From Leptolyngbya ohadii IS1 (GTDB taxonomy: Bacteria; Cyanobacteriota; Cyanobacteriia; Elainellales; Elainellaceae): 64,000 nucleotides of DNA. Made by a program: the position numbers and the translations under genes. Shown piece by piece: positions 3,341 through 49,175 of the stretch. Below the pieces are notes generated by a model. It saw only the letters and a list, made by a program, of their open reading frames with translations, was not told the DNA's origin and searched no databases. The stretch is taken from positions 2,943,080-3,007,079 of the forward strand of contig NZ_NKFP01000006.1 in the NCBI RefSeq assembly GCF_002215035.1. Direction: 5' to 3'. Numbering within the stretch: the first letter of the stretch is position 1; each line of letters begins with the position of its first letter.

Positions 3341-4725
3341 TTCCGCAGCAGAAAGGTCAGAACTGCCGCCAGTAAACAAATTCCCGCTAACCCGATCAAC
3401 AGCGGTGGAACCCCGATCGCCCCCTGTAAAATCGGTAAGCCAAAGGCTCCAACGACGGCTCCCGCTTTCGCAACCGCAGCAGCAAACCCGGCTCCGCTGG
3501 CACGAATCGACGTAGGAAAAACCTCCCCAGACAGCAGAAAGGTAGTCGAATTGGGTCCGGCATTCATTGTCAGGTTAAACACAAAAAATCCCAGAAACAC
3601 GATCGCCGTATTCCACACCGTTCCTGAACTTACCCAGCCCGAACCTGCCAGAATCAGCAGCCCGATCGCCATTCCCACAAAGCCGAGAATTTGCAGCCGA
3701 ATCCGTCCGACTCGCTCCACGCAAACTACAGCAATCAGAAAGCCTGCGATTAGAAACAAATCCACGATCGCCGCTCCCGTTGCCGATGCCAGTTCTCGCC
3801 CCAGCAGATCGGTCTGATTTGCGAAAGCCAGAGCCGCGATAATCGTGGGGGTAAAAATGCCGATGCCGTAGGTGGCAATGTCCTGCAAAAACCAGGGAAT
3901 CGAGGCAAGCAGCGTCCGACGACGGTAGGAACTGGAGAAGAGATCGCCATAGGATAAGGGCGTTTCCGTTTCCGGTGGATCGGTTTCTGGCGTCAGGGCG
4001 ATCGGCATTTCCAGGAGGGTAGAAGCTGCCTTTGATGCTGCCTCATAGTCTCCCCGTGCCAGGTAGTAGCTCGGACTTTCCAGCAAAAAATTGAGCCGCA
4101 ATAGCCCCACCGCGATCGCCAGCCCCAACCCCACGCCCAGCATCCACCGCCATCCGTAATGAATTACAGGCTGCACCGAATCGGGCAAAAAGGTCTGAAA
4201 CGCCGCAATGATGCCAATTCCCGTGATTGCGCCCAGCAGTGCCCCCACCGCCTGAAAGGTAAACGCTCCAATCACCATGCGTCCGCGCAGCCGCGCTGGA
4301 ACATTCTCCGTAATGTAGGACACGCTAATCGGATAATCCGCCCCGATCGCCACTCCCACCAGAAACCGAAACCCAATCAGCGACAGAGCATCCCATGCCA
4401 GCGCCGTCCCCGCCGAAGCAATGACAAACAGCGCCACATCGATTAGCAGCATCCGCTGTCGCCCAATCCGATCGGTCAACGGTCCCAGCGTGAGTGAACC
4501 CACCAGCGAACCGACGATCGCCGCCACCGCCACCGCCCCAATTTCCGTCGGACTCAGGCTAAAGTCCCGCTGAAGGAAAGGCAGCGCCACGCCAATAATA
4601 AAAAAGTCAAAGCCGTCCAGCGCAATCAGCCCCGCCGACAAAGCCCACAGCAGCCACATCACCCGCGTGAGGTCAGACTCATCGAGCCGCTGTTCAAACG
4701 ATCGAACCTGGGGAGGGGCAACCAT
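3337..4725 (-). CDS. MFS transporter, sugar/metabolite porter type
   Basis: This 462-residue protein has about 12 hydrophobic segments. The MFS motif A, LTDRIGRQRM, lies between TM2 and TM3, and a related VERVGRIRLQ lies in the second half. The N-terminal DGFDFFIIGVALP helix resembles the sugar porter/MHS subfamilies, which are inner-membrane proton symporters for sugars or organic acids. The substrate cannot be read from the sequence. The gene is convergent with the serine hydrolase (4-bp overlap). A 175-bp piece of its own 5' coding region is repeated upstream at 4922-5096. Confidence 0.88.
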   Translation of the reverse strand: MVAPPQVRSFEQRLDESDLTRVMWLLWALSAGLIALDGFDFFIIGVALPFLQRDFSLSPTEIGAVAVAAIVGSLVGSLTLGPLTDRIGRQRMLLIDVALFVIASAGTALAWDALSLIGFRFLVGVAIGADYPISVSYITENVPARLRGRMVIGAFTFQAVGALLGAITGIGIIAAFQTFLPDSVQPVIHYGWRWMLGVGLGLAIAVGLLRLNFLLESPSYYLARGDYEAASKAASTLLEMPIALTPETDPPETETPLSYGDLFSSSYRRRTLLASIPWFLQDIATYGIGIFTPTIIAALAFANQTDLLGRELASATGAAIVDLFLIAGFLIAVVCVERVGRIRLQILGFVGMAIGLLILAGSGWVSSGTVWNTAIVFLGFFVFNLTMNAGPNSTTFLLSGEVFPTSIRASGAGFAAAVAKAGAVVGAFGLPILQGAIGVPPLLIGLAGICLLAAVLTFLLRN

Positions 4726-4921
4726 AGCACTGATGCAAAAAAACTAATGCAGAATAAACCGATGCAAAATCTCCCCTCCAGTATCCCTGTTTCCCGAACG
4801 CCCCAAATGCGCCAAAAGGACAAAAAAATCCCCGAACGCCAAAAAAGGTGTCCGGGAAATTGAAATCAGGGTGCATCTACCACTTCACTCTTCCAGCCAT
4901 CCATAACCCGTCCGGAAACTT

Positions 4922-5096
4922 CGCCCCAATTTTTGTCGGACTCAGGCTAAAGTCCCGCTGAAGGAAAGGCAGCGCCACGCCAATAATAAAAAAGTCAAAG
5001 CCGTCCAGCGCAATCAGCCCCGCCGACAAAGCCCACAGCAGCCACATCACCCGCGTGAGGTCAGACTCATCGAGCCGCTGTTCAAACGATCGAACC
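4922..5096 (-). repeat. Truncated duplicate of the MFS gene 5' region
   Basis: Bases 4922-5096 repeat 4534-4708 at a constant offset of 388 bp, with only two adjacent mismatches near the left end (CC versus TT). The copied piece covers roughly residues 6-64 of the transporter but lacks the start codon, so it is not expressible as such. The rest of the 585-bp gap (4726-5310) has no convincing gene. It includes short A-rich tracts and a twice-used CCCGAACGCC motif (about 4793-4838). Confidence 0.9.
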
Positions 5097-5310
5097 GGGC
5101 AAGGCGAAAAGGTGCCCCGATGCAGCGATCGATCCTCAGGGGGGAAATTCGCAGCGGATTGCTAAAAACTCTCCTGGGCATCGCTCAGGCAGGAGAACAA
5201 TGGATAAGGATAAGCTAGGAAATTAGCAGAATTGTCGTAGGTCGATCGTCGGTTGTTCGGTTGATGCAGGTGTATATCAGTTGAGCGAATAGCAGGAGCG
5301 CACGGGTAAG

Positions 5311-7917: not shown

Positions 7918-7988
7918 AGGGTGGATGAGTAGATGAGTAGAGGGGTGGATGGGTAGGGGAGAAGCGGGGCAGGGAGCAGGGGGGTGGG
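7918..7988. repeat. G-rich low-complexity intergenic tract
   Basis: The 70 bp between the convergent CHAT and dnaB genes consist almost entirely of GGGTGGATGAGTAGATGAG-like units followed by GGGGCAGGGAGCAGGGG. It belongs to the same purine-rich filler seen in other intergenic gaps of the window. Confidence 0.6.
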
Positions 7989-10820
7989 TTAGGGGCGGGT
8001 GGGGGCGGCTAGGTTGCGGAAACGGGTGAATTGGGGTTCAAAGAGGAGTTTGACGGTACCGACGGGTCCGTTTCGGTGTTTGGTGAGGATGACTTCGGCA
8101 ATGCCGCGATCGGGGGTGTCGGGGTTATAGTATTCCTCCCGGTAAAGCATCATGACTAGGTCTGCATCTTGCTCAATTGAACCGCTTTCTCTTAAATCTG
8201 ACATCATCGGGCGTTTATTGGTTCTTGATTCTACGCCCCGACTCAACTGGGACAGGGCAATAATCGGAACCTGTAATTCTCGCGCTAAGCCTTTGAGCGA
8301 TCGCGTCATTTTAGAAAGTTCCTGCACCCGGTTATCGCCGGAACCTTCCATGAGCTGCAAATAATCGATCAAAATCAGACCCATTGCCCCGCCCTGCTCC
8401 GCCTGCAAACGACGGGCTTTCGATCGCATCTCCGTCACCGAAATATTGGGCGTATCGTCAATAAAAATCGGCAGTTGGGACAGGGTACTGATCGCGTGAC
8501 CCAGTGGCTCCCATTCCGTTTGGGCAATCCGACCCGATCGCAGTCTGCCGCTTTCGATCTGTGCCTCGCTGGACAGCAGACGATAAACGAGCTGCTCTTT
8601 GGACATTTCCAGGCTGAAAACGGCGATCGGGAGCTTATGGAAAGCCGCAATATTGCGGGCAATATTCAACACAAAACTGGTGTTGTGGACGCAGATGTCG
8701 TTGGCGACAAAGTTGTGAGTTTTCGGGATGGTCAGGTCGTACACCTGCTTGTAGCCCGTTAGCTCGATCGTAAGGATTTCGTCCCAGTAAATGTCGGATG
8801 TTGCAAGCGCCTGTAAATCTGGAGATTCTAGAGCCGTTGCCAGTGACAGGAGACGATCGCGGGTTGGAGCACGTTTGCCCACATGAATATTGGAACCTGA
8901 AATTCCGGCTTTGACCGCAATAGCTTTCCAGGACTGCGAGCCTTTAGCCTCAGCTAGTTCAGACCAGACTTCTAGCGAAATCAGATCGCGATTGGTTTGA
9001 TACCGCTTGCCCTGAAGTGCGGCTCTAACGGCTGAAATGGCGGCTTCCTTCCCAAAAATTCCGATCTGACTGATAAAAGTCCCGATCGATCGGGCATCGG
9101 TGATATCAAGCTGCCAGCAAGGGCGACGCTCATCCCGATATTTCACAGAACGCTGTTTCAGAGCGGCGATGATGCCAAACCGCAGCAGCAAATGTTGAAT
9201 CTGCCGAACCAATTTCTCGCTAACGCTGGCAAACCCAAGCTGTGCCTGTCCACTCGCCAGAACCGTCGCCCAACCATCTGTTGCAAATAGCCGATTAAGA
9301 AATAGGGCAACCTGCGATCGCTCAAGCTGGAAAACTTGAGACGGAATGATTTTCGCGTGAGCGTCTTTCCCCCAAAGCTGAAGCTGTTTGAGCCAGTCGG
9401 TTAGCGGATTGCGGGCTCCAATGCTGGAAAAACCACCGGACACAAGTTCCTCGGCTGACACCTGCAATGTGTCGCAAAGGGCGGTAAAGGTTCCCAGGTT
9501 AGGGGCGCAAACGCCTTGCTGCCATTGACTAACCAGGGACGGGCTGACGTTAAGCTGCTTCGCTAACTGACAAACGCCGATCGATCGATCAGCAAGCTTC
9601 TGCCGTAATGCATGCCCGAACTGCTGACGACGACTTGCCAGTTTCGCAAAATCAGTCGCAATGTAAAAGCTAGGGGCACGCTGTCCCTCTAAGGTTTCGA
9701 CTCGGATACTCAGATTGCCAAACTGCTGGATTGCCTCAACGAAATCCTGCTGAATCTGCGGATTGGTGTTGGTAAAGCTGGGGCAGGTGTGGGTAAGGCA
9801 ACCATCGCCAATTAAGTAGGCAAGCAGTTTGACTTGGTGTTCGGGCAGTTTTTCTTGACCAAAGCAGGGAATTTGGCGCGGGACGGCAATTTTATCGCCT
9901 GGTTGCAGTTCTGCTAGTTGCCGCCAGCCTTCTACAGTCAGGAACGGATGGGTCAGCGTCGTTTCGATCGATCGCCCCAAACGAGTGACCACTCGAAACA
10001 CAGGTTTAATGCCGTCATCAACAAAGGCAGAGGGCTGCGTCCAGCTTAGCTTCCAATCGTCGCCCAGCGTGAGCAGATTTGCCTGTTGCCGCTCGTACAG
10101 TTCTTGAATCGTGGCAATGGAGCCATCCTGTAAAACGATTTCTGCATCGTAGGCAAGACATTTGCCCATCGACGGACGACCCGCTGCAATAATCAAATCC
10201 GATCGCTGAAATCCCTGAGTCATTGCATCCAGATCGTAGAAGCCGCAGGAAATTCCCGGCAGCACCAGACCGAGCGATCGGCTTTCAATATCAGAAAAGG
10301 TGGAAGTCAGAATATCCGAAGTGGCGACGAGTGCTTGACTGGGGCGAACCTGGGTGATGCTAAAAACCTTCTGCTCCGCCTGATCCAGAACCTTCTCGAC
10401 CGGGGAAGCGATGTCGTATCCGAGCTGAGCCACCTCCGTTCCCACATGGATCAGCCTGCGGCGCAGATACTTATCCATCACCAGATGGGCGTACTGATCA
10501 ATATTGACGGCGCTCACCGTGCGATCGACCAGTTCGGCTAAACGGCTCTGTCCGCCGACTTTCTCCAGTAATCCGTGGTCGTAGAGCCAGGTGGTGATGC
10601 TCATCAGATCGGTCGGTTTGCCCTGTGCCTGGAGCGTGGTTGCCGCCCGATAGATTTCCTGATGGGCACTGATGTAAAACGCCTCTGGACGCAGAATCTC
10701 CAGCACCCGCCCGATCGCCTCTGGATCAAGCAAAATGCCGCCCAGAATCGCCTCTTCTGCGTCAATATTTTGGGGCGGAACCCGATCGCTGTAGCCCTGG
10801 AAATTGAGTTCGTGAACCAT
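7989..10820 (-). CDS. dnaB: Replicative DNA helicase DnaB with intein
   Basis: The 943-residue precursor is DnaB interrupted by an intein. The N-extein (220 residues, 10161-10820) has the DnaB N-terminal start [14 protein letters not shown]. The Walker A GRPSMGK ends exactly at the intein, and the C-extein (230 residues, 7989-8681) resumes with [10 protein letters not shown]. Later motifs are [10 protein letters not shown] (Walker B) and LSQLSRGVE. Spliced, the protein is 450 residues, the usual DnaB length. It forms the hexameric 5'-3' helicase of the replication fork. The intein breaks the ATP-binding P-loop between Lys and Thr, so activity requires splicing. This is a known DnaB intein insertion site in cyanobacteria. 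The divergence from rplI across the gap is only apparent: both genes lie on the minus strand, with rplI upstream. Confidence 0.97.
8682..10160 (-). mobile_element. DnaB intein with LAGLIDADG endonuclease and HTH insert
   Basis: A 493-residue in-frame insertion at the P-loop. It begins with Cys1 ([10 protein letters not shown]), has a block-B-like TLTHPF with His71, and ends VANDICVHN followed by Thr, as expected for a class 1 intein. A LAGLIDADG-type motif LLAYLIGDG lies at intein residues 112-120, and a second, LFATDGW, near 291-297. Between them, about 183-240, is an XRE-like helix-turn-helix ([15 protein letters not shown]). Another HTH-like stretch ([19 protein letters not shown]) lies near 414-432. 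Intein endonucleases home into empty alleles of the same site. Both endonuclease motifs keep their acidic residue, so homing activity is possible but untested. Confidence 0.93.
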
Positions 10821-14566: not shown

Positions 14567-15256
14567 ATGTCACCGATTAAAGCTGTTCAATCGACCTATT
14601 ACGGAGGAGGAGATTCCTTTTACCGGACTCCGCCGCCAGACCTGCCTTCCCTGCTGCTGAAGGAGCGAATCATTTATCTCGGCTTGCCCCTGGTGTCGTC
14701 GGACGATTTCAAGCGGCAGATGGGCGTAGACGTGACGAAGCTGATTATTGCCCAGTTGCTCTATCTGCAATTTGACGACCCAGATAAGCCGATCTACTTC
14801 TACATCAACTCTACCGGAACCTCCTGGTACACCGGAGACGCGATCGGCTACGAGACTGAGGCGTTTGCCATCTGCGACACGATCGGCTACATCAAACCCC
14901 CGGTTCACACCATCTGCATCGGTCAGGCAATGGGAACTGCAGCGATGATCCTCTCCGCAGGCACTAAGGGCTTCCGCGCCAGCTTGCCCCACGCCACGAT
15001 CGTTCTGAACCAGCCGCGTACAGGCGCACAGGGTCAGGCAACCGATATTCAGATTCGGGCGAAGGAAGTGCTGGTGAACAAAGCCGCGATGCTCGACATT
15101 CTGGCTCACAACACCGGACAGACCCCCGAAAAGATCGCCAAAGATACCGATCGGATGTTCTACATGACTCCGGCAGAAGCGAAGGAGTACGGACTGATCG
15201 ATCGCGTTCTGGAAAGCGTGAAAGATCTGCCCAAGCCAATTCCCGCCCTCACCTAA
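14567..15256 (+). CDS. clpR: ClpR, catalytically inactive ClpP-like subunit (first copy)
   Basis: A 229-residue ClpP-family protein starting MSPIKAVQS. All three catalytic positions are changed. The Ser of GxAxSxG is Gly in GQAMGTAAM, the His in the IHQP motif is Asn (VLNQPRTG), and the Asp position in DTDRMFYM is Met. In cyanobacteria and plastids, ClpR subunits form mixed rings with ClpP3 and work with ClpC. It is followed by a second ClpR-like gene and an active ClpP in the same direction, forming a three-gene unit. The intergenic gap to the next gene (82 bp) carries a family A repeat. Confidence 0.9.
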   Translation: MSPIKAVQSTYYGGGDSFYRTPPPDLPSLLLKERIIYLGLPLVSSDDFKRQMGVDVTKLIIAQLLYLQFDDPDKPIYFYINSTGTSWYTGDAIGYETEAFAICDTIGYIKPPVHTICIGQAMGTAAMILSAGTKGFRASLPHATIVLNQPRTGAQGQATDIQIRAKEVLVNKAAMLDILAHNTGQTPEKIAKDTDRMFYMTPAEAKEYGLIDRVLESVKDLPKPIPALT

Positions 15257-15278
15257 TCAAAAACCTGTTTGGACAAAT

Positions 15279-15307
15279 TTCTTGTGGGGTGGGCATCTTG
15301 CCCGCCC
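15279..15307 (+). repeat. Dispersed palindromic repeat, family A
   Basis: The core CTTGTGGGGTGGGCATCTTG is followed by CCCGCCC, an imperfect palindrome GGGCATCTTGCCC. It lies between the two clpR genes. Further copies are at 16653-16681 (+), 26433-26461 (-) and 62908-62934 (-), all intergenic. Confidence 0.8.
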
Positions 15308-15338
15308 GGTTCCCCGGAAACCTAACTGAAATAGCCAT

Positions 15339-16004
15339 ATGTCCGTAGATCCTATTTTGCGCGTTCCCTATAACATTCCGGGCAGTCAATCCTGGCAGTG
15401 GGTCAATGTCTACACGCGCATGAGCCAGGAGCGAATCATCTTCCTGAATCAGCCAATTACGGACGGTTTAGCGAACTCGATTATTTCTGCTCTGCTTTAC
15501 CTGGAGTCCGACGACCAGAATAAGCCCATCTACCTCTATATCAACTCCCTGGGTGACCCGCTTGCCGCAGGCATGGCTTCGATTACCGCAGGCATGATTT
15601 CCGTGACGGCAGGGCTGGCAATCTACGATACGATGCAGCACATCAAGTCCGAGATCATCACGATCTGCATGGGTCAATCCCTCGGTATGGCAACCCTGCT
15701 GCTGTCCTCCGGCTCAAAAGGCAAGCGAGCTAGCCTACCCAATGCCTCGATCGCCCTCATGCCCAACCGGACGGGAACTCAGGGACAGGCAACCGATATT
15801 GAAGTCACGGCGCGAGAAATCCTGGGCAAACAGTCGCTGATTCTGGACATTCTCTCAAAGAACACCGGACAGCCGATCGAAAAACTCATCAAAGACACCG
15901 ATCGCATGTTCTACATGACTCCCCAGGAAGCAAAGGAGTACGGACTGATCGATCGCGTCGTCGAAAGCCCCAAAGTCTCCCAGCCTGCTGCGGCAACCGT
16001 GTAA
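15339..16004 (+). CDS. ClpP-like subunit, inactive, with repeat insert (second ClpR)
   Basis: A 221-residue ClpP-family paralogue that also lacks the triad. The nucleophile loop is [10 protein letters not shown] (Gly at the Ser position), the His position is Pro (ALMPNRTG), and the Asp position is Met (DTDRMFYM). Compared with the neighbouring ClpP it carries about 16 extra residues after YINS, with a repeating xTAGM pattern ([18 protein letters not shown], about 71-88), next to the axial/handle region. It is 23 bp upstream of clpP and probably co-transcribed. It likely enters a mixed ring with the two neighbours, which is inference. Confidence 0.88.
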
Positions 16005-16027
16005 TCATCTACATACCCACAAAAACT

Positions 16028-16633
16028 ATGCCAATTGGAATTCCCAGCGTCCCCTATCGCCTTCCCGGCAGTACCTACGAGCAGTGGATTAGTATCTACG
16101 AGCGGCTGTTCCGGGAGCGCATTATCTTCCTGGCTGAAGAGGTCGATGACGGTATTGCCAATGCGATCGTCGCCTATATGCTGTACCTTGACTCGGAAGA
16201 CCAGAGTAAGCCGATCTACTTGTATATCAACTCGCCCGGTGGCTCTGTGACCGCAGGCATGGCGATCTACGATACGATGCAGCACATCAAGTCGGAAGTG
16301 GTGACTATCTGTGTCGGTCTTGCCGCTTCGATGGGCGCATTCCTTCTGACCGCAGGCAGCAAAGGCAAGCGTCTATCACTGCCCCACGCCCGCATCATGA
16401 TCCACCAGCCCCTCGGCGGCACGGGTCGCAGACAGGCAACCGATATCGACATCGAGGCAAGGGAAATTCTCCGAACTCGAGAGCGTTTGAATGGTTTGAT
16501 GGCATATCACACGGGCAAAACCGTAGAGCAGATCGAGCGTGACACCGATCGTGATAACTTCATGTCTGCTCAGGAAGCCAAGGAGTACGGACTGATCGAT
16601 CAGGTGATCGAAAGTCAGGCACTCGTCCGATAG
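16028..16633 (+). CDS. clpP: ATP-dependent Clp protease proteolytic subunit
   Basis: A 201-residue serine peptidase with a complete triad: Ser in [11 protein letters not shown], His in MIHQPLGG, and Asp in [10 protein letters not shown]. The N-terminus [14 protein letters not shown] is typical of cyanobacterial ClpP3-type subunits. It forms the proteolytic chamber that degrades unfolded proteins handed over by a Clp ATPase. It is the last gene of the clpR-clpR2-clpP unit, 23 bp after the second ClpR, and is followed by a family A repeat. Confidence 0.95.
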
Positions 16634-26461: not shown

Positions 26462-26506
26462 ATACAGCCCATTCACTTCCTAATCCAGGAAGAAAAAGTC
26501 TCCCCT

Positions 26507-26590
26507 GCTCCCTGCTCCCACTCCCTTGCTCCCCTGCTCTCCCCTCCTTCCCCGCTGACCCATCCACTTACCTCCCCATCCACCCCTAAA
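26507..26590. repeat. C-rich low-complexity tract (CCCCTGCTC units)
   Basis: About 80 bp of CCCCTGCTCCC and CCCTTGCTCCCC-like units directly before the response regulator. Similar tracts lie at about 1930-1975, 29300-29440, 42860-42900, 49117-49175 and 63042-63072, all intergenic. The response regulator's ribosome-binding site (AAAGGAG at 26588) abuts the tract. Confidence 0.6.
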
Positions 26591-42877: not shown

Positions 42878-43603
42878 CTACTCCCTACTCCCCACTTCTA
42901 CCTGTCCCGGCGGCACAAACCCTACTACAGGCAAAGGCGGCGGCGTGATCTTAGTGCGATCGACCGAGGGACACAGATCCGCCAAGGCGCAGTTCTGGCA
43001 GGCAGGATTGCGGGCATTACAGACGGCGCGACCGTGATAAATCAGCCGAATCGACCAGTTCTCCCAGTCTGGCTGGGGCAATAGCTTCATTAAGTCCCGC
43101 TCGATCTTTAGCGGTTCCGTTTCCTTCGTCAGTCCCAGGCGTCCGCTGAGGCGCTTAACGTGGGTATCGACGGTGACTCCCGCATGGATGCCAAAGGCAT
43201 GAGCCAGGACCACATTCGCTGTCTTGCGGGCAACCCCCGGCAGAGTCAGCAGGTCTTCCATCTTTTGAGGCACTTCCCCGCCGTATTCCGTCATGATTCG
43301 GCGACAGGCTGCCTGGATATTCTTGGCTTTATTACGGTAAAAACCAGTCGATCGCACCAGGGATTCAATTTCAGCTAGATCGGCATTGGCAAACGCTTCG
43401 GCATCTGGAAAGCGGCGGAACAGGGCAGGCGTCACCTGATTCACTCGCTCGTCGGTACATTGGGCGGACAGAATCGTGGCAACCATGAGCTGCACAGGCG
43501 TCTCATAGTCGAGGGTGCAGGGGGCTTCCGGGTAGAGCCGCTTTAGACGCACCAAAATCTCTAGCGCCTGCTGTTTTCGGGCGGAAAGGCTGCGAAGTCT
43601 CAC
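42878..43603 (-). CDS. nth: Endonuclease III
   Basis: A 241-residue base-excision repair glycosylase/AP lyase for oxidised pyrimidines. It has the helix-hairpin-helix LPGVARKTANVVL with the catalytic Lys, the catalytic Asp in VDTHVKRL, and the 4Fe-4S loop C-x6-C-x2-C-x5-C (CNARNPACQNCALADLC). There is a short C-terminal tail after the cluster. The length is slightly above the usual ~215 because of that tail and an N-terminal extension. Confidence 0.96.
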   Translation of the reverse strand: MRLRSLSARKQQALEILVRLKRLYPEAPCTLDYETPVQLMVATILSAQCTDERVNQVTPALFRRFPDAEAFANADLAEIESLVRSTGFYRNKAKNIQAACRRIMTEYGGEVPQKMEDLLTLPGVARKTANVVLAHAFGIHAGVTVDTHVKRLSGRLGLTKETEPLKIERDLMKLLPQPDWENWSIRLIYHGRAVCNARNPACQNCALADLCPSVDRTKITPPPLPVVGFVPPGQVEVGSRE

Positions 43604-43718
43604 GGTTGGAAGAGATTAGAAGGAGAGGGGTCTACGTCAGCTCTGATCCTAGCGAAATTGCGGCGCTGTAGGCGATCGTTCAGGGCGATCGGGGGATCAA
43701 GCAAAGATTGTGAGCAGA

Positions 43719-44660
43719 CTACTGGAAGAGACGCTGGAAGATGGCAAGCTGGGTCGTATCGCGAACGATCAGGAAGATCCCCAAGCCCAGCAGCAGCACC
43801 AGTCCGGTTTGCATCACGTTTTCCTGAATCCGGTTAGGCAGGGGTTTGCCCCGTAGTCCTTCCAGCAGCAGGAATACGAGCTGACCGCCATCCAGCGCCG
43901 GGAGTGGCAGGATGTTGATGATTGCCAGGTTGATGCTGATAATTGCTGTGAAGGGAAACAGACTGCCCGCATTGGCGGCTACCAGTCCTGCGCCCTGCTC
44001 CACAATTTTGACGGGTCCAGCAACCTGCCCTGCCATTGAGGAGAAGTTGGTGATCAGGCTGACAAATCCTTTCACCGTTGCCATAAACATTCCCTGAAAT
44101 TGAAGTGCTGCCAGTCGTAGCACCTCAAAGACGCCGTTTGGACGACGGTATTGAGTCGCAGCCACGTTGGGGGCAAGCTGTACACCGATCTTGGCAATAC
44201 CATCTTCCCCAGCTCTGGGCGTGACGCTGAGGTCAACCTGACGATCGCCCCGCTGTACGGTCAAGCCAACGGGATTATCTGCATTGTCGCGAATTGTCTG
44301 CATCAACGACTTCACTGCATCCTGGGATGCGCCGAGCGGCTGATCATTCACCGCCACAATAATATCGCCCGCCTGAATGCCCGCTTGGGCTGCCGGAGAC
44401 TGCTGCGAAATAATCTCTGGGACAACTACGCCCGCCTGATAATCAAACTTTTCCGGAATGCCGATCGTCGAAAACTGCGCCACGAATACCAGATAGGCAA
44501 AGATCAGGTTGGCAATCACCCCGGCGCTGATCACAATGGCGCGATCGAGGACGGGACGGTTTTTCAGCAGGTTAGGATCGTTGGGCGGAATGGTGCTGTC
44601 TGGGTCATCGTCAGGGAAGCCAACAAAACCACCGAGCGGGATCGCCCGCAGTGCATATTC
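43719..44660 (-). pseudogene. Site-2 metalloprotease RseP, N-terminus missing
   Basis: The reading frame runs from the stop at 43719 to 44660, giving 313 residues. It starts with [15 protein letters not shown] and includes [16 protein letters not shown], the PDZ domain ([19 protein letters not shown]) and the C-terminal NILPLPALDGGQ motif that supplies the third zinc ligand. An in-frame stop lies three codons upstream (44667-44669). The first ~50 residues, which should carry the HExxH zinc site and TM1, are absent. Upstream DNA is the scrambled mosaic. The gene therefore either has been broken by rearrangement or is misassembled. A GTG at 44534 cannot rescue the active site. Confidence 0.85.
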
Positions 44661-45133
44661 GTGCGCTCAGCACTCTCCGGCAGCCCAAGCGGGCATTCAG
44701 GCGGGCGATATTATTGTGGCGGTGAATGATCAGCCGCGCGGCTGATCATTCACCGCCACAATAATATCGCCCGCCTGAATGCCCGCTTGGGCTGCCGGAG
44801 ACTGCTGCGAAATAATCACTGCGGGCGATCCCGCTCGGTGGTTTTGTTGGCTTCCCTGACGATGACCCAGACAGCACCATTCCGCCCAACGATCCTATCC
44901 TGCTGAGCGGGTTTACTTCCTCCAGAAGGGCGCAGTCAAACTCTCCCATCAGGCAATTGCAGAGGCGATCGGCTCGTTGTCCTGTAATCAGGGAGAGGAC
45001 GCCGAATACACTGTTTTCCCGCAGCAGTGCTACCGTAATTTCCTCGCCTGCTTCGTACACGCGGGAGAGTTTGAGGTCGATCGTGATGCCGTCTGCGGTC
45101 GGGATGCCAAAGTCGCGGCAGAGGATGAGCAGG
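44661..45133. other. Scrambled mosaic of rseP and ntcA fragments
   Basis: Blocks, in order: 44674-44737 is an inverted copy of 44336-44399; 44738-44817 a direct copy of 44336-44415; 44817-44897 an inverted copy of 44573-44653; 44897-44947 an inverted copy of ntcA 45739-45789; 44936-44975 an inverted copy of 45351-45390; 44965-45074 a direct copy of 45641-45750; 45063-45133 a direct copy of 45379-45449. Alignment is exact as far as I can read it. Three junctions share 11-12 bp (TCAAACTCTCCC, GCGATCGGCTC, GGGAGAGTTTGA). Any ORFs read here are chimeric. Confidence 0.92.
44674..44801. repeat. Perfect 128-bp palindrome
   Basis: Two 64-bp arms with no spacer, centred between 44737 and 44738 at GATCAGCCGCGCGGCTGATC. 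Both arms derive from the PDZ-coding part of rseP. Long spacerless palindromes are normally unstable in bacteria, which supports a recent or artefactual origin. Confidence 0.92.
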
Positions 45134-45156
45134 GAGCAAGGAAGAGAATAGGGGCA

Positions 45157-45182
45157 GGATGCGTTAGCGGAGTGTAACGCAT
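45157..45182 (+). repeat. Dispersed palindromic repeat, family C
   Basis: GGATGCGTTAGCGGAGTGTA followed by ACGCAT, between the mosaic and the ntcA stop. It resembles the copies at 12388-12418 and 29327-29351, so the native downstream region of ntcA appears to begin by here. Confidence 0.65.
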
Positions 45183-45232
45183 GGCATTTGAGATTTGGAG
45201 GGGTAATGCGGGGGATCGGGGCGAGCCTCGCC

Positions 45233-45904
45233 TCAGGTGAACTGCTGGCTGAGGGTGACGGGGTTGTGGACGGTAATTCTTTTCTTGTGAATGGAAATCA
45301 TCTGATCCTGGCGGAGATCGCCTAGCAGGCGCGTGACCGTAACCCGTGTAGAGCCGATCGCCTCTGCAATTGCCTGATGGGAGAGTTTGAGGTCGATCGT
45401 GATGCCGTCTGCGGTCGGGATGCCAAAGTCGCGGCAGAGGATGAGCAGGAAGCTGACCAATCGCGAACCCATATCCCGGTGTGCCAGGGTTTCGATCATC
45501 ATCTCGGTTTGCAGAATCCGCGAGGACAGACCTTGCAGCATCAGCATACAAAGCTCTGGGTTTTCCTTCAGGGCTTTCTCAACCTGCTCGATCGGCACTG
45601 ACAGCAGTTCTACCGGGGTAAAGGCAACGGCATGATAGAAGCGATCGGCTCGTTGTCCTGTAATCAGGGAGAGGACGCCGAATACACTGTTTTCCCGCAG
45701 CAGTGCTACCGTAATTTCCTCGCCTGCTTCGTACACGCGGGAGAGTTTGACTGCGCCCTTCTGGAGGAAGTAAACCCGCTCAGCAGGATCACCAGGAAAG
45801 AAGATTGTCTTGCCGCGATCGTAGGTTTCAACGACAGGCGGAAAAGCTGTTCCGCTCAGTTGACGAAAGACGTTTGCCAACGGTTTGTTCGGTGCAGCTA
45901 CCAT
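45233..45904 (-). CDS. ntcA: Global nitrogen regulator NtcA
   Basis: A 223-residue CRP/FNR-family activator that responds to 2-oxoglutarate and controls nitrogen assimilation genes in cyanobacteria. A cyclic-nucleotide-binding-like domain (about 20-135) includes [22 protein letters not shown], here split at 35-56. The C-terminal HTH has [21 protein letters not shown] (about 172-192), the near-invariant NtcA recognition region. The length is typical. The gene is intact even though fragments of it are copied into the mosaic downstream. A perfect NtcA box lies upstream, consistent with autoregulation. Confidence 0.97.
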
Positions 45905-46114
45905 ATCCCTTTCCCCAGCCCGCCTTTGTATAAGAATCCATCTTATCGTCGTCAGCCGCTCAGGAGATCGTATGTTCTACCCATTCTTTGCTAAGCCGCG
46001 CTGTTTCAACACAAGGGTTATAAGTTGCCGAGCTTAAGTTCAGTAGGGTAGCCAGACTTCTGTGATGGCTTTCTGACTTTTAAATTACTAAACTTAACTC
46101 TGCGCTGATTTTTT

Positions 46115-46128
46115 GTATAACGTATTAC
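46115..46128 (-). promoter_or_regulatory. NtcA-binding site upstream of ntcA
   Basis: GTATAACGTATTAC fits the consensus GTA-N8-TAC exactly. It lies 211-224 bp upstream of the ntcA start. On the ntcA strand a TAAGTT (TAN3T type) -10-like hexamer follows about 18 bp later. NtcA autoregulation is established in cyanobacteria; use of this particular site is inferred. Confidence 0.7.
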
Positions 46129-46268
46129 ACATTAAAGCCTATCTTGGTTATGGGTAGGCTAAAATCCGGAATTTGGGTCAAAAAATTAGGAAACACAGCG
46201 CAAAAGCAATCCAATGGGGAGATTCTATCTGAGGAATTTTCTGCTAGAGGCAGAGCCATAACGGCAAC

Positions 46269-46928
46269 CTAGCAGGCACCCCGTCGGCACAGCACAACCT
46301 GAATTGTTTTGAGAATGAGCCGCAGATCGTAAGCGATCGACCAGCGTTCCTGATAGCGCCGATCCAGCCGGACAATTTCCTCGAAATCCGTGACCGTTGA
46401 GCGACCGTTTGCCTGCCATTCGCCCGTGATCCCCGGTTTGACCTCTAACCGTTGCCAGTGGTGGGGCTGGTACCGCTTGACTTCCTCCAGCGTGGGTGGA
46501 CGAGTTCCCACTAGGCTCATGTCGCCGCACAGCACGTTCCAGAACTGGGGTAGCTCATCCAGACTGGTGCGCCGCAGGAATTGACCCACCCGCGTAATGC
46601 GGGGATCGCGATCGTTCTTAAAAATCTGCCCCTGTGCCTGATTTTCGACCAGATGCTGAAGTCGCTCTGCATTGACCACCATCGATCGAAACTTCCAGAT
46701 TCGGAAGGTCTGCCCGCGAAAGCCACATCGAATTTGGGAGTAGAAAATGGGACCGGGATCGCTGAGGTAAATTGCCAGGGCGATCGGCAGGAAAACCAGA
46801 GCGGTCAGCGCCAGACCGACGATTGCGCCCAGGATGTCGATCGATCGTTTTGCTTTGCTGCGGACAGAGAGATGGATTGCCAGAGCCGGGGAGGGGAGAG
46901 CGGGAGCAGATTTGGAATGACTGAGCAT
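46269..46928 (-). CDS. Bacterial sugar transferase (priming glycosyltransferase)
   Basis: A 219-residue PF02397 enzyme that transfers a sugar-phosphate to undecaprenyl phosphate to begin exopolysaccharide or capsule repeat synthesis. It has KRSIDILGA at the start, one transmembrane helix (about 35-57), IWKFRSMVVNA, RRTSLDELPQFWNVL and MSLVGTRPP. The catalytic Asp/Glu pair is in the SLDELPQ region. It is a single gene rather than part of a polysaccharide cluster. The last residues (VVLCRRGAC) are the usual end. The 364-bp gap to ntcA (45905-46268) otherwise holds only the NtcA box. Confidence 0.93.
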   Translation of the reverse strand: MLSHSKSAPALPSPALAIHLSVRSKAKRSIDILGAIVGLALTALVFLPIALAIYLSDPGPIFYSQIRCGFRGQTFRIWKFRSMVVNAERLQHLVENQAQGQIFKNDRDPRITRVGQFLRRTSLDELPQFWNVLCGDMSLVGTRPPTLEEVKRYQPHHWQRLEVKPGITGEWQANGRSTVTDFEEIVRLDRRYQERWSIAYDLRLILKTIQVVLCRRGAC

Positions 46929-47129
46929 AGGGGTAGATGACGGGGGAGGCTGTTTTCGGACAGCTTGGAGTGCCGCTAAACCCAGAATGGACTTCTATCC
47001 GGAGACAAATAGCAGAGCCAGTTTCGCTTTACCAACACTTCAAGGACAGCTTCAGAAATCGGATTGGTCTGCGGGAAAATCACACCGCAATTTCCACAGG
47101 GTGACGCCATCCCTGGTTAAGATGCTGGT

Positions 47130-48916: not shown

Positions 48917-49120
48917 ATGGCAAAAGTATTGATTCCCCTTCTTACGGCAGTCTGGATCGGCGTCGTCGCCCTGATTGCGATCCAGAACGCTGCCCCGATT
49001 ACGTTTCAATTTCTGGGCTTCCAGACAATTCAGATTCCGATCGGCTTAGTGCTGGCATTTAGTGTGGCGATCGGGATGGCGGGGACGGCGTTGTTTTTGC
49101 CGCTGGGAGGGCGGGATTAG
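48917..49120 (+). CDS. LapA-like (DUF1049) small membrane protein
   Basis: A 67-residue protein with two transmembrane segments (about 4-22 and 40-60) and the typical connecting stretch IAIQNAAPITFQFLGFQTIQ (20-39), which resembles LapA/DUF1049 (AxQNxxPVxxxF pattern). It lies 24 bp after the lipoprotein gene and may be co-transcribed. The role is unknown; E. coli LapA relates to LPS assembly. Confidence 0.78.
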   Translation: MAKVLIPLLTAVWIGVVALIAIQNAAPITFQFLGFQTIQIPIGLVLAFSVAIGMAGTALFLPLGGRD

Positions 49121-49175
49121 GGAGCAGGGGGTAGGGGAGCAGGGGGGCAGGGAGTAGAGTGTAGGGGAGTAGGGA
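49117..49175. repeat. G-rich low-complexity tract
   Basis: GGGGGTAGGGGAGCAGGGG-type units directly after the LapA-like gene. It belongs to the same intergenic filler family as 7918-7988 and 26507-26590 (complement). Confidence 0.6.

What the first reader, a model, noticed from the sequence alone, without database searches (positions are those of the whole stretch)
44661..45133. Scrambled mosaic of rseP and ntcA fragments between the two genes
Seven blocks of the flanking rseP and ntcA genes are repeated here in mixed orientation, with 11-12 bp of shared sequence at three junctions. The arrangement is consistent with microhomology-mediated template switching, but also with amplification (MDA) chimeras or a misassembled repeat graph. 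The N-terminal part of rseP is lost exactly where the mosaic begins.
Basis: seen in the sequence. Interest (0 to 1): 0.85.

Follow-up and report, generated by a model that had tools for sequence, protein, structure and literature searches.

The report
Spurious assembly filler between two genes
The scrambled stretch between rseP and ntcA is really in this genome record, but similar scrambles occur at many other places in the record and break genes the cell should need, so it is most likely a gap filled with wrong sequence during assembly rather than a biological rearrangement.

Summary
Seven exact blocks of rseP and ntcA fill 460 of 473 bases of 44661-45133 in mixed orientation, with 12, 11 and 12 nt shared at three junctions. 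The first 50 or so codons of rseP, with the HExxH motif, have no good match in the 7.9 Mb record, while the same-genus genome G001 has intact rseP (364 aa) beside ntcA.

The locus is not unique. In 2.06 Mb of the same record, about a quarter, I found 20 loci with exact inverted repeats and 57 block-to-block junctions; in 1.36 Mb of control sequence 2 such loci (one a small natural palindrome) and 2 junctions. The scrambles leave no intact rseP, purH or hslO. Pieces are local, strand orientation is mixed (17 same, 13 switched, 5 ambiguous of 35 collapsed junctions) and overlaps peak at 10 nt. This fits gaps closed from a pool of flanking reads better than phi29 chimeras, which were about 97% inverted locally in one E. 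coli study. I estimate artefact at about 0.91 and a real in vivo rearrangement at about 0.06. Raw reads, which I could not see, would decide.

The parts
43719..44660 (-). rseP remnant (RIP metalloprotease), about 315 codons open; first ~50 codons missing
   Evidence: TIGR00054 E 1.2e-56 for the 271-aa ORF 43719-44534; 315-codon open frame; G001 has 364 aa
44661..44673 (.). left edge of the mosaic; one base missing relative to G001 and one mismatch to the block source
   Evidence: read from sequence
44674..44737 (-). block 1: inverted copy of 44336-44399 (rseP)
   Evidence: exact over 64 nt
44738..44817 (+). block 2: direct copy of 44336-44415 (rseP); with block 1 a 128-bp spacerless palindrome
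   Evidence: exact over 80 nt
44817..44897 (-). block 3: inverted copy of 44573-44653 (rseP)
   Evidence: exact over 81 nt
44897..44947 (-). block 4: inverted copy of 45739-45789 (ntcA)
   Evidence: exact over 51 nt
44936..44975 (-). block 5: inverted copy of 45351-45390 (ntcA); 12-nt overlap with block 4
   Evidence: exact over 40 nt
44965..45074 (+). block 6: direct copy of 45641-45750 (ntcA); 11-nt overlap with block 5
   Evidence: exact over 110 nt
45063..45137 (+). block 7: direct copy of 45379-45453 (ntcA); 12-nt overlap with block 6; one mismatch near its right end
   Evidence: exact to 45133; 99% over 75 nt
45138..45232 (.). spacer between the mosaic and the end of ntcA, no local repeat; no significant match to the G001 spacer either
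45233..45904 (-). ntcA, intact (223 aa), source of blocks 4-7
   Evidence: TIGR03697 E 1.5e-117

Best explanation
The mosaic is an assembly artefact. The true DNA here (the start of rseP and the intergenic spacer; 467 nt in the same-genus relative find no match in the window) was not recovered, and the gap was closed with a false path. The path was built from flanking reads of both strands, joined at overlaps of about 10-12 nt or at imperfect overlaps. Shown: the mosaic, its recurrence in this record, the overlap lengths, the mixed strand orientation and the missing coding starts. Inferred: the software step, since neither reads nor methods for this genome were available.
For: (1) Recurrence: 20 loci with exact inverted repeats (arms 32 nt or more, within 3 kb) in 2.064 Mb of the same record, against 0 in 600 kb of G003, 2 in 200 kb of G008 (one a natural 32-bp palindrome, one a 214-bp pair 1.3 kb apart) and 0 in 564 kb of relatives' rseP loci. 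(2) Gene damage a living isolate should not tolerate: purH residues 1-42 not found, rseP residues 1-50 not found, hslO only as 23-306 and, inverted, 2-207; the same-genus G001 has all three intact. (3) The blocks come from within about 0.65 kb of the mosaic, from both flanks. (4) Strand orientation at 35 collapsed junctions: 17 same, 13 switched, 5 ambiguous, as a pool of reads of both strands would give. (5) Overlaps have mode 10 nt (9 of 35) and 17 of 35 are 10 nt or longer, which looks like a minimum-overlap rule. (6) The blocks tile 460 of 473 bases without an interior mismatch, so there is no sign of age. (8) At the left edge a base is missing from a GG run and a base is wrong next to the junction, as in a poor read end.
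Against: The sequencing method, reads and depth were not seen. Three of the six block-block junctions in the window share only 0-1 nt exactly, and 18 of the 35 collapsed junctions share fewer than 10 nt, so a strict 10-nt rule does not cover every join. Not every scramble destroys a gene or its spacer: trmB has an intact copy beside its partial copies, and part of the G001 trmB spacer is recognisable there. The genome is rated 100% complete, so losses are confined to short stretches.
Confidence: 0.6

Rival explanations
1. Still an artefact, but made in the tube: whole-genome amplification (phi29 MDA) or library-preparation chimeras entered the assembly where true coverage was poor.
For: MDA chimeras join local segments, mostly inverted, at 2-21 complementary nt (PMC1855051, passages). 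Human-data studies give an overlap peak at 6 nt and a distance peak at 250-300 nt (PMC4595205, passages), or a peak at 7 nt with over 95% at 3-13 nt and distances peaking at 80-280 nt (PMC5372508, passages). Here 27 of 35 overlaps are 3-13 nt, and several loci are simple inverted repeats with spacers of about 30-260 nt. Spacerless palindromes fit fold-back or end-to-end priming (inference).
Against: For segments under 10 kb apart MDA chimeras in E. coli were 337 inverted against 11 direct (Table 1), whereas 13 of 35 junctions here switch strand clearly. The mode of overlap is 10 nt, longer than the published peaks. There is no evidence that this DNA was amplified.
Confidence: 0.31
2. A real in vivo rearrangement: replication stalled in the spacer and restarted by repeated microhomology-mediated template switching between nearby strands, deleting the start of rseP.
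For: The block pattern, junction microhomology and deletion are what template switching gives (recalled). In G001 the corresponding spacers at 4 of 5 compared loci hold a G-quadruplex-like G tract, a plausible fork barrier. A polyploid cyanobacterium could carry such alleles beside intact ones.
Against: About ten such loci per Mb in this record (20 in 2.064 Mb), almost none in the controls. purH, rseP and hslO left without an intact copy in the record. No interior mismatch in the blocks here. G-quadruplex-like tracts are common and present elsewhere in the record (234 in 2.064 Mb).
Confidence: 0.06
3. A mobile or repeat element, or selected regulatory DNA, lies between the genes.
For: Long palindromes and inverted repeats can belong to mobile elements (recalled).
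Against: All seven blocks of the window mosaic are copies of the immediate flanks. Outside this locus the region finds only two matches in the genome, 80-83% over under 60 nt. The arrangement differs between the loci looked at.
Confidence: 0.01

Closest known systems
False gap closure or local misassembly in scaffolded draft genomes (recalled as a general error class; no paper read for it)
   Same: Missing native DNA, filler of local flank sequence, short joins, recurrence across one assembly.
   Different: The responsible program and its overlap rule are not known; three joins in the window have almost no exact overlap.
phi29 MDA chimeras (PMC1855051, PMC4595205, PMC5372508; passages read)
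   Same: Local segments, inverted joins, short complementary overlaps, multi-part chimeras.
   Different: Only 13 of 35 joins here clearly switch strand; overlap mode 10 nt rather than 6-7.
Microhomology-mediated template switching (MMBIR/FoSTeS; recalled)
   Same: Several short templated blocks in mixed orientation with microhomology and a deletion.
   Different: Expected as rare single events; here about ten loci per Mb with loss of needed genes.

Membership tests
False gap closure / misassembly | The same type of scramble recurs in the assembly and not in comparable genomes | tested here: met
   20 inverted-repeat loci in 2.064 Mb against 2 in 1.364 Mb of controls; 57 junctions against 2
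False gap closure / misassembly | Native DNA present in a close relative is missing at the site | tested here: met
   Coding starts of rseP, purH and hslO missing or separated; 467, 324 and 481 nt of G001 sequence without a match at the rseP, L131:9678 and purH loci. At trmB part of the spacer is present. Spacers diverge, so only the coding losses are firm.
False gap closure / misassembly | No raw read spans the joins at normal depth | not testable with these tools
   no reads available
phi29 MDA chimera | Local joins predominantly inverted (337 of 348 under 10 kb in E. coli) | tested here: not met
   13 switched, 17 same, 5 ambiguous of 35; with looser collapsing 18, 20, 4 of 42
phi29 MDA chimera | Overlaps mostly 3-13 nt, peak 6-7 nt | tested here: inconclusive
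   27 of 35 at 3-13 nt, but mode 10 nt
phi29 MDA chimera | DNA was amplified with phi29 polymerase | not testable with these tools
   strain and method not identified
In vivo template switching (MMBIR) | Junctions with microhomology and templated local blocks | tested here: met
In vivo template switching (MMBIR) | Compatible with a viable genome | tested here: inconclusive
   no intact purH, rseP or hslO found in the record, which speaks against it; intact alleles on other chromosome copies cannot be excluded without reads

The most novel reading that the evidence does not exclude
The scrambles are real: this cyanobacterium carries genome-wide scars of replication template switching, perhaps at G-tract-bearing intergenic regions, with intact alleles kept on other chromosome copies.
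Probability: 0.04. Interest if true: 0.9.

Novelty: not a real feature. Interest (0 to 1): 0.15.

Why it matters
If it is an artefact, the record's apparent loss of the rseP active site, of the purH start and of hslO should not be used as biology, and roughly 75 such places may exist in this assembly (20 per 2.064 Mb, scaled to 7.9 Mb: an extrapolation). The signature (exact local inverted repeats joined at about 10 nt, absent in a close relative) could serve as a simple screen for false gap closures in other drafts.

Tried and rejected
Strain identity: the genome contigs answer notes that records of the window's own genome may be left out, and none of the 80 loci kept is it. A paper search for amplified cyanobacterial filaments found 0 papers with all five terms.

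Hairpin-prone native DNA as the cause of the gaps: folding of five G001 stretches showed nothing stronger than background (-0.090 to -0.120 against a mean of -0.128 per nt); rejected. G-quadruplex-like tracts: present in 4 of 5 G001 stretches, but they are common in intergenic DNA (recalled) and 234 occur in 2.064 Mb of this record; kept only as a lead. Two more comparisons with G001 (L140 and L148) showed split matches but the missing part was not fetched; L148 maps to two G001 contigs.

My first repeat scans used a complexity filter that wrongly dropped repeats longer than about 140 nt; one search corrects this and its counts are used. The 57 junctions include joins listed more than once and joins seen from the source side (for instance window 45379 and 45739). 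One search gives 46 distinct coordinates and 39 after collapsing by overlap string; one search gives 42 coordinates without self-palindromes, still with source-side views; collapses these to 35, the figures used here. Not all 20 loci were examined by eye, and some may be ordinary repeats. In drafting I had taken the trmB spacer as missing; one search shows that part of it is present, and I mended that.

Full report
What is there. The stretch 44661-45133 is filled (460 of 473 bases) by seven blocks copied from the flanking genes: three from rseP, four from ntcA, four inverted and three direct. The blocks were sought as exact matches, so the zero mismatches over their summed 497 nt are by construction; the point is that they tile the stretch. 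Blocks 1 and 2 form a 128-bp palindrome without spacer. Three junctions share 12, 11 and 12 nt; the 12-mer of two of them occurs natively twice in ntcA (45379-45390 and 45739-45750). The other three block-block junctions share 0-1 nt exactly. 364 of 454 20-mers are shared with the flanks, against at most 0 in 200 shuffles.

What is missing. The same-genus genome G001 has rseP of 364 aa, a 320-nt spacer and ntcA in the same order. Its contig length and place equal those of Cyanobacteria bacterium FACHB-502, JACJNZ010000061.1. Of the 59 relatives searched besides the own genome, 53 have an rseP frame of 359 codons or more (two of them, G009 and G015, with a TAA inside the matched stretch); three (G021, G026, G035) have partial or split matches and three (G005, G011, G029) none or only weak ones (counted by me from the table). 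In the window the frame ends at the mosaic. 467 nt of G001 sequence between the last match in rseP and the end of ntcA find no match in 43000-47000, and rseP residues 1-50 find no good match in the 7.9 Mb genome. HExxH as the active-site motif is recalled; the G001 protein shows HELGH.

It recurs. I took 100 further stretches of 20 kb from the same record, 2.064 Mb with the window, about a quarter of the genome. A scan for exact inverted repeats (arms of 32 nt or more, within 3 kb) found 20 loci. The same scan found 0 in 600 kb of the single-contig genome G003, 2 in 200 kb of the single-contig genome G008, and 0 in 99 rseP loci of relatives (564 kb, some loci held twice). The two in G008 are a natural 32-bp palindrome and a 214-bp pair 1.3 kb apart. 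Block-to-block junctions numbered 57 against 0, 0 and 2. One place holds a 1020-bp perfect palindrome (L131:9678-10697). Not every locus was examined by eye.

Genes are broken. At L131 the purH frame starts only at about residue 47 of the G001 protein, behind a 78-bp palindrome and a 218-bp copy of the upstream gene, and purH residues 1-42 were not found elsewhere in the genome. PurH makes the last two steps of IMP synthesis (recalled; family by TIGR00355). hslO was found only as residues 23-306 and, inverted, 2-207; G001 has 306 aa. Against this, trmB has an intact copy beside its partial copies: there the scramble lies between two divergent genes without loss of trmB, and part of the G001 spacer is still recognisable. 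At L131:9678-10697 the 324 nt that lie in G001 between the flanking matches find no match in L131:7000-12000; spacers diverge, so this alone does not prove loss.

Which kind of artefact. Collapsed to 35 junctions in own-genome stretches, 17 keep the strand, 13 switch and 5 are ambiguous; overlaps run from 0 to 14 nt with mode 10 (9 of 35), and 17 are 10 nt or longer. In MDA of a single E. coli cell joins of segments under 10 kb apart were 337 inverted and 11 direct, with 2-21 complementary nt (PMC1855051, passages). In human MDA data the overlap peak was 6 nt (PMC4595205, passages) or 7 nt (PMC5372508, passages). The strand balance and the longer overlaps here speak for joining of reads of both strands under a minimum-overlap rule, though 18 of 35 joins are shorter than 10 nt; MDA or library chimeras remain possible. 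The base lost from a GG run and the mismatch at the left edge resemble a poor read end; this is inference.

Could it be real? Template switching in vivo would give similar blocks. It would have to occur at about ten loci per Mb and leave no intact copy of purH and rseP in the record. Polyploidy could hide intact alleles, so a small probability stays. G-tracts in 4 of 5 compared G001 stretches would suit both fork stalling and sequencing dropout; they are common elsewhere, so I give them little weight.

Verdict. Observation confirmed; best read as an artefact of gap closure (0.6) or of amplification/library chimeras (0.31), together about 0.91; in vivo event about 0.06. Interest low, except as a warning about this record.

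Noticed in passing
L131:9678-10697 (own genome, C6:309678-310697): A 1020-bp perfect palindrome without spacer, next to a 316-bp inverted repeat; 324 nt of the corresponding G001 sequence find no match there.
   Followed up: partly
L131:4686-4984 (own genome, C6:304686-304984): purH has lost its first 42 or so codons behind a 218-bp copy of the upstream gene and a 78-bp palindrome.
   Followed up: yes
L159:3986-5314 (own genome, C6:463986-465314): hslO is present as an inverted copy of residues 2-207 and a direct copy lacking the first 22 residues.
   Followed up: yes
L173:13259-15503 (own genome, C6:753259-755503): Between trmB and a gene that looks by eye like a phosphoesterase lie scrambled copies of both, while intact trmB remains.
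   Followed up: partly
L116:12722-13082, L162:15212-15662, L163:11021-13038, L196:683-1190: Runs of 361 and 451 N and stretches with many short N runs: unresolved or withheld parts of the record.
   Followed up: no
window 4534-5109: Two copies of 188 nt, 96% identical, 388 nt apart start to start; diverged, unlike the blocks of the mosaic.
   Followed up: no
window 14849-16614: Three neighbouring copies of related coding sequence, 66-86% alike to the reference copy; by eye they look like clpP paralogues (not tested).
   Followed up: no
window 7942-8005, 26502-26561, 49105-49152 and others: 15 G-quadruplex-like G- or C-tracts in the window, all outside the mosaic.
   Followed up: no
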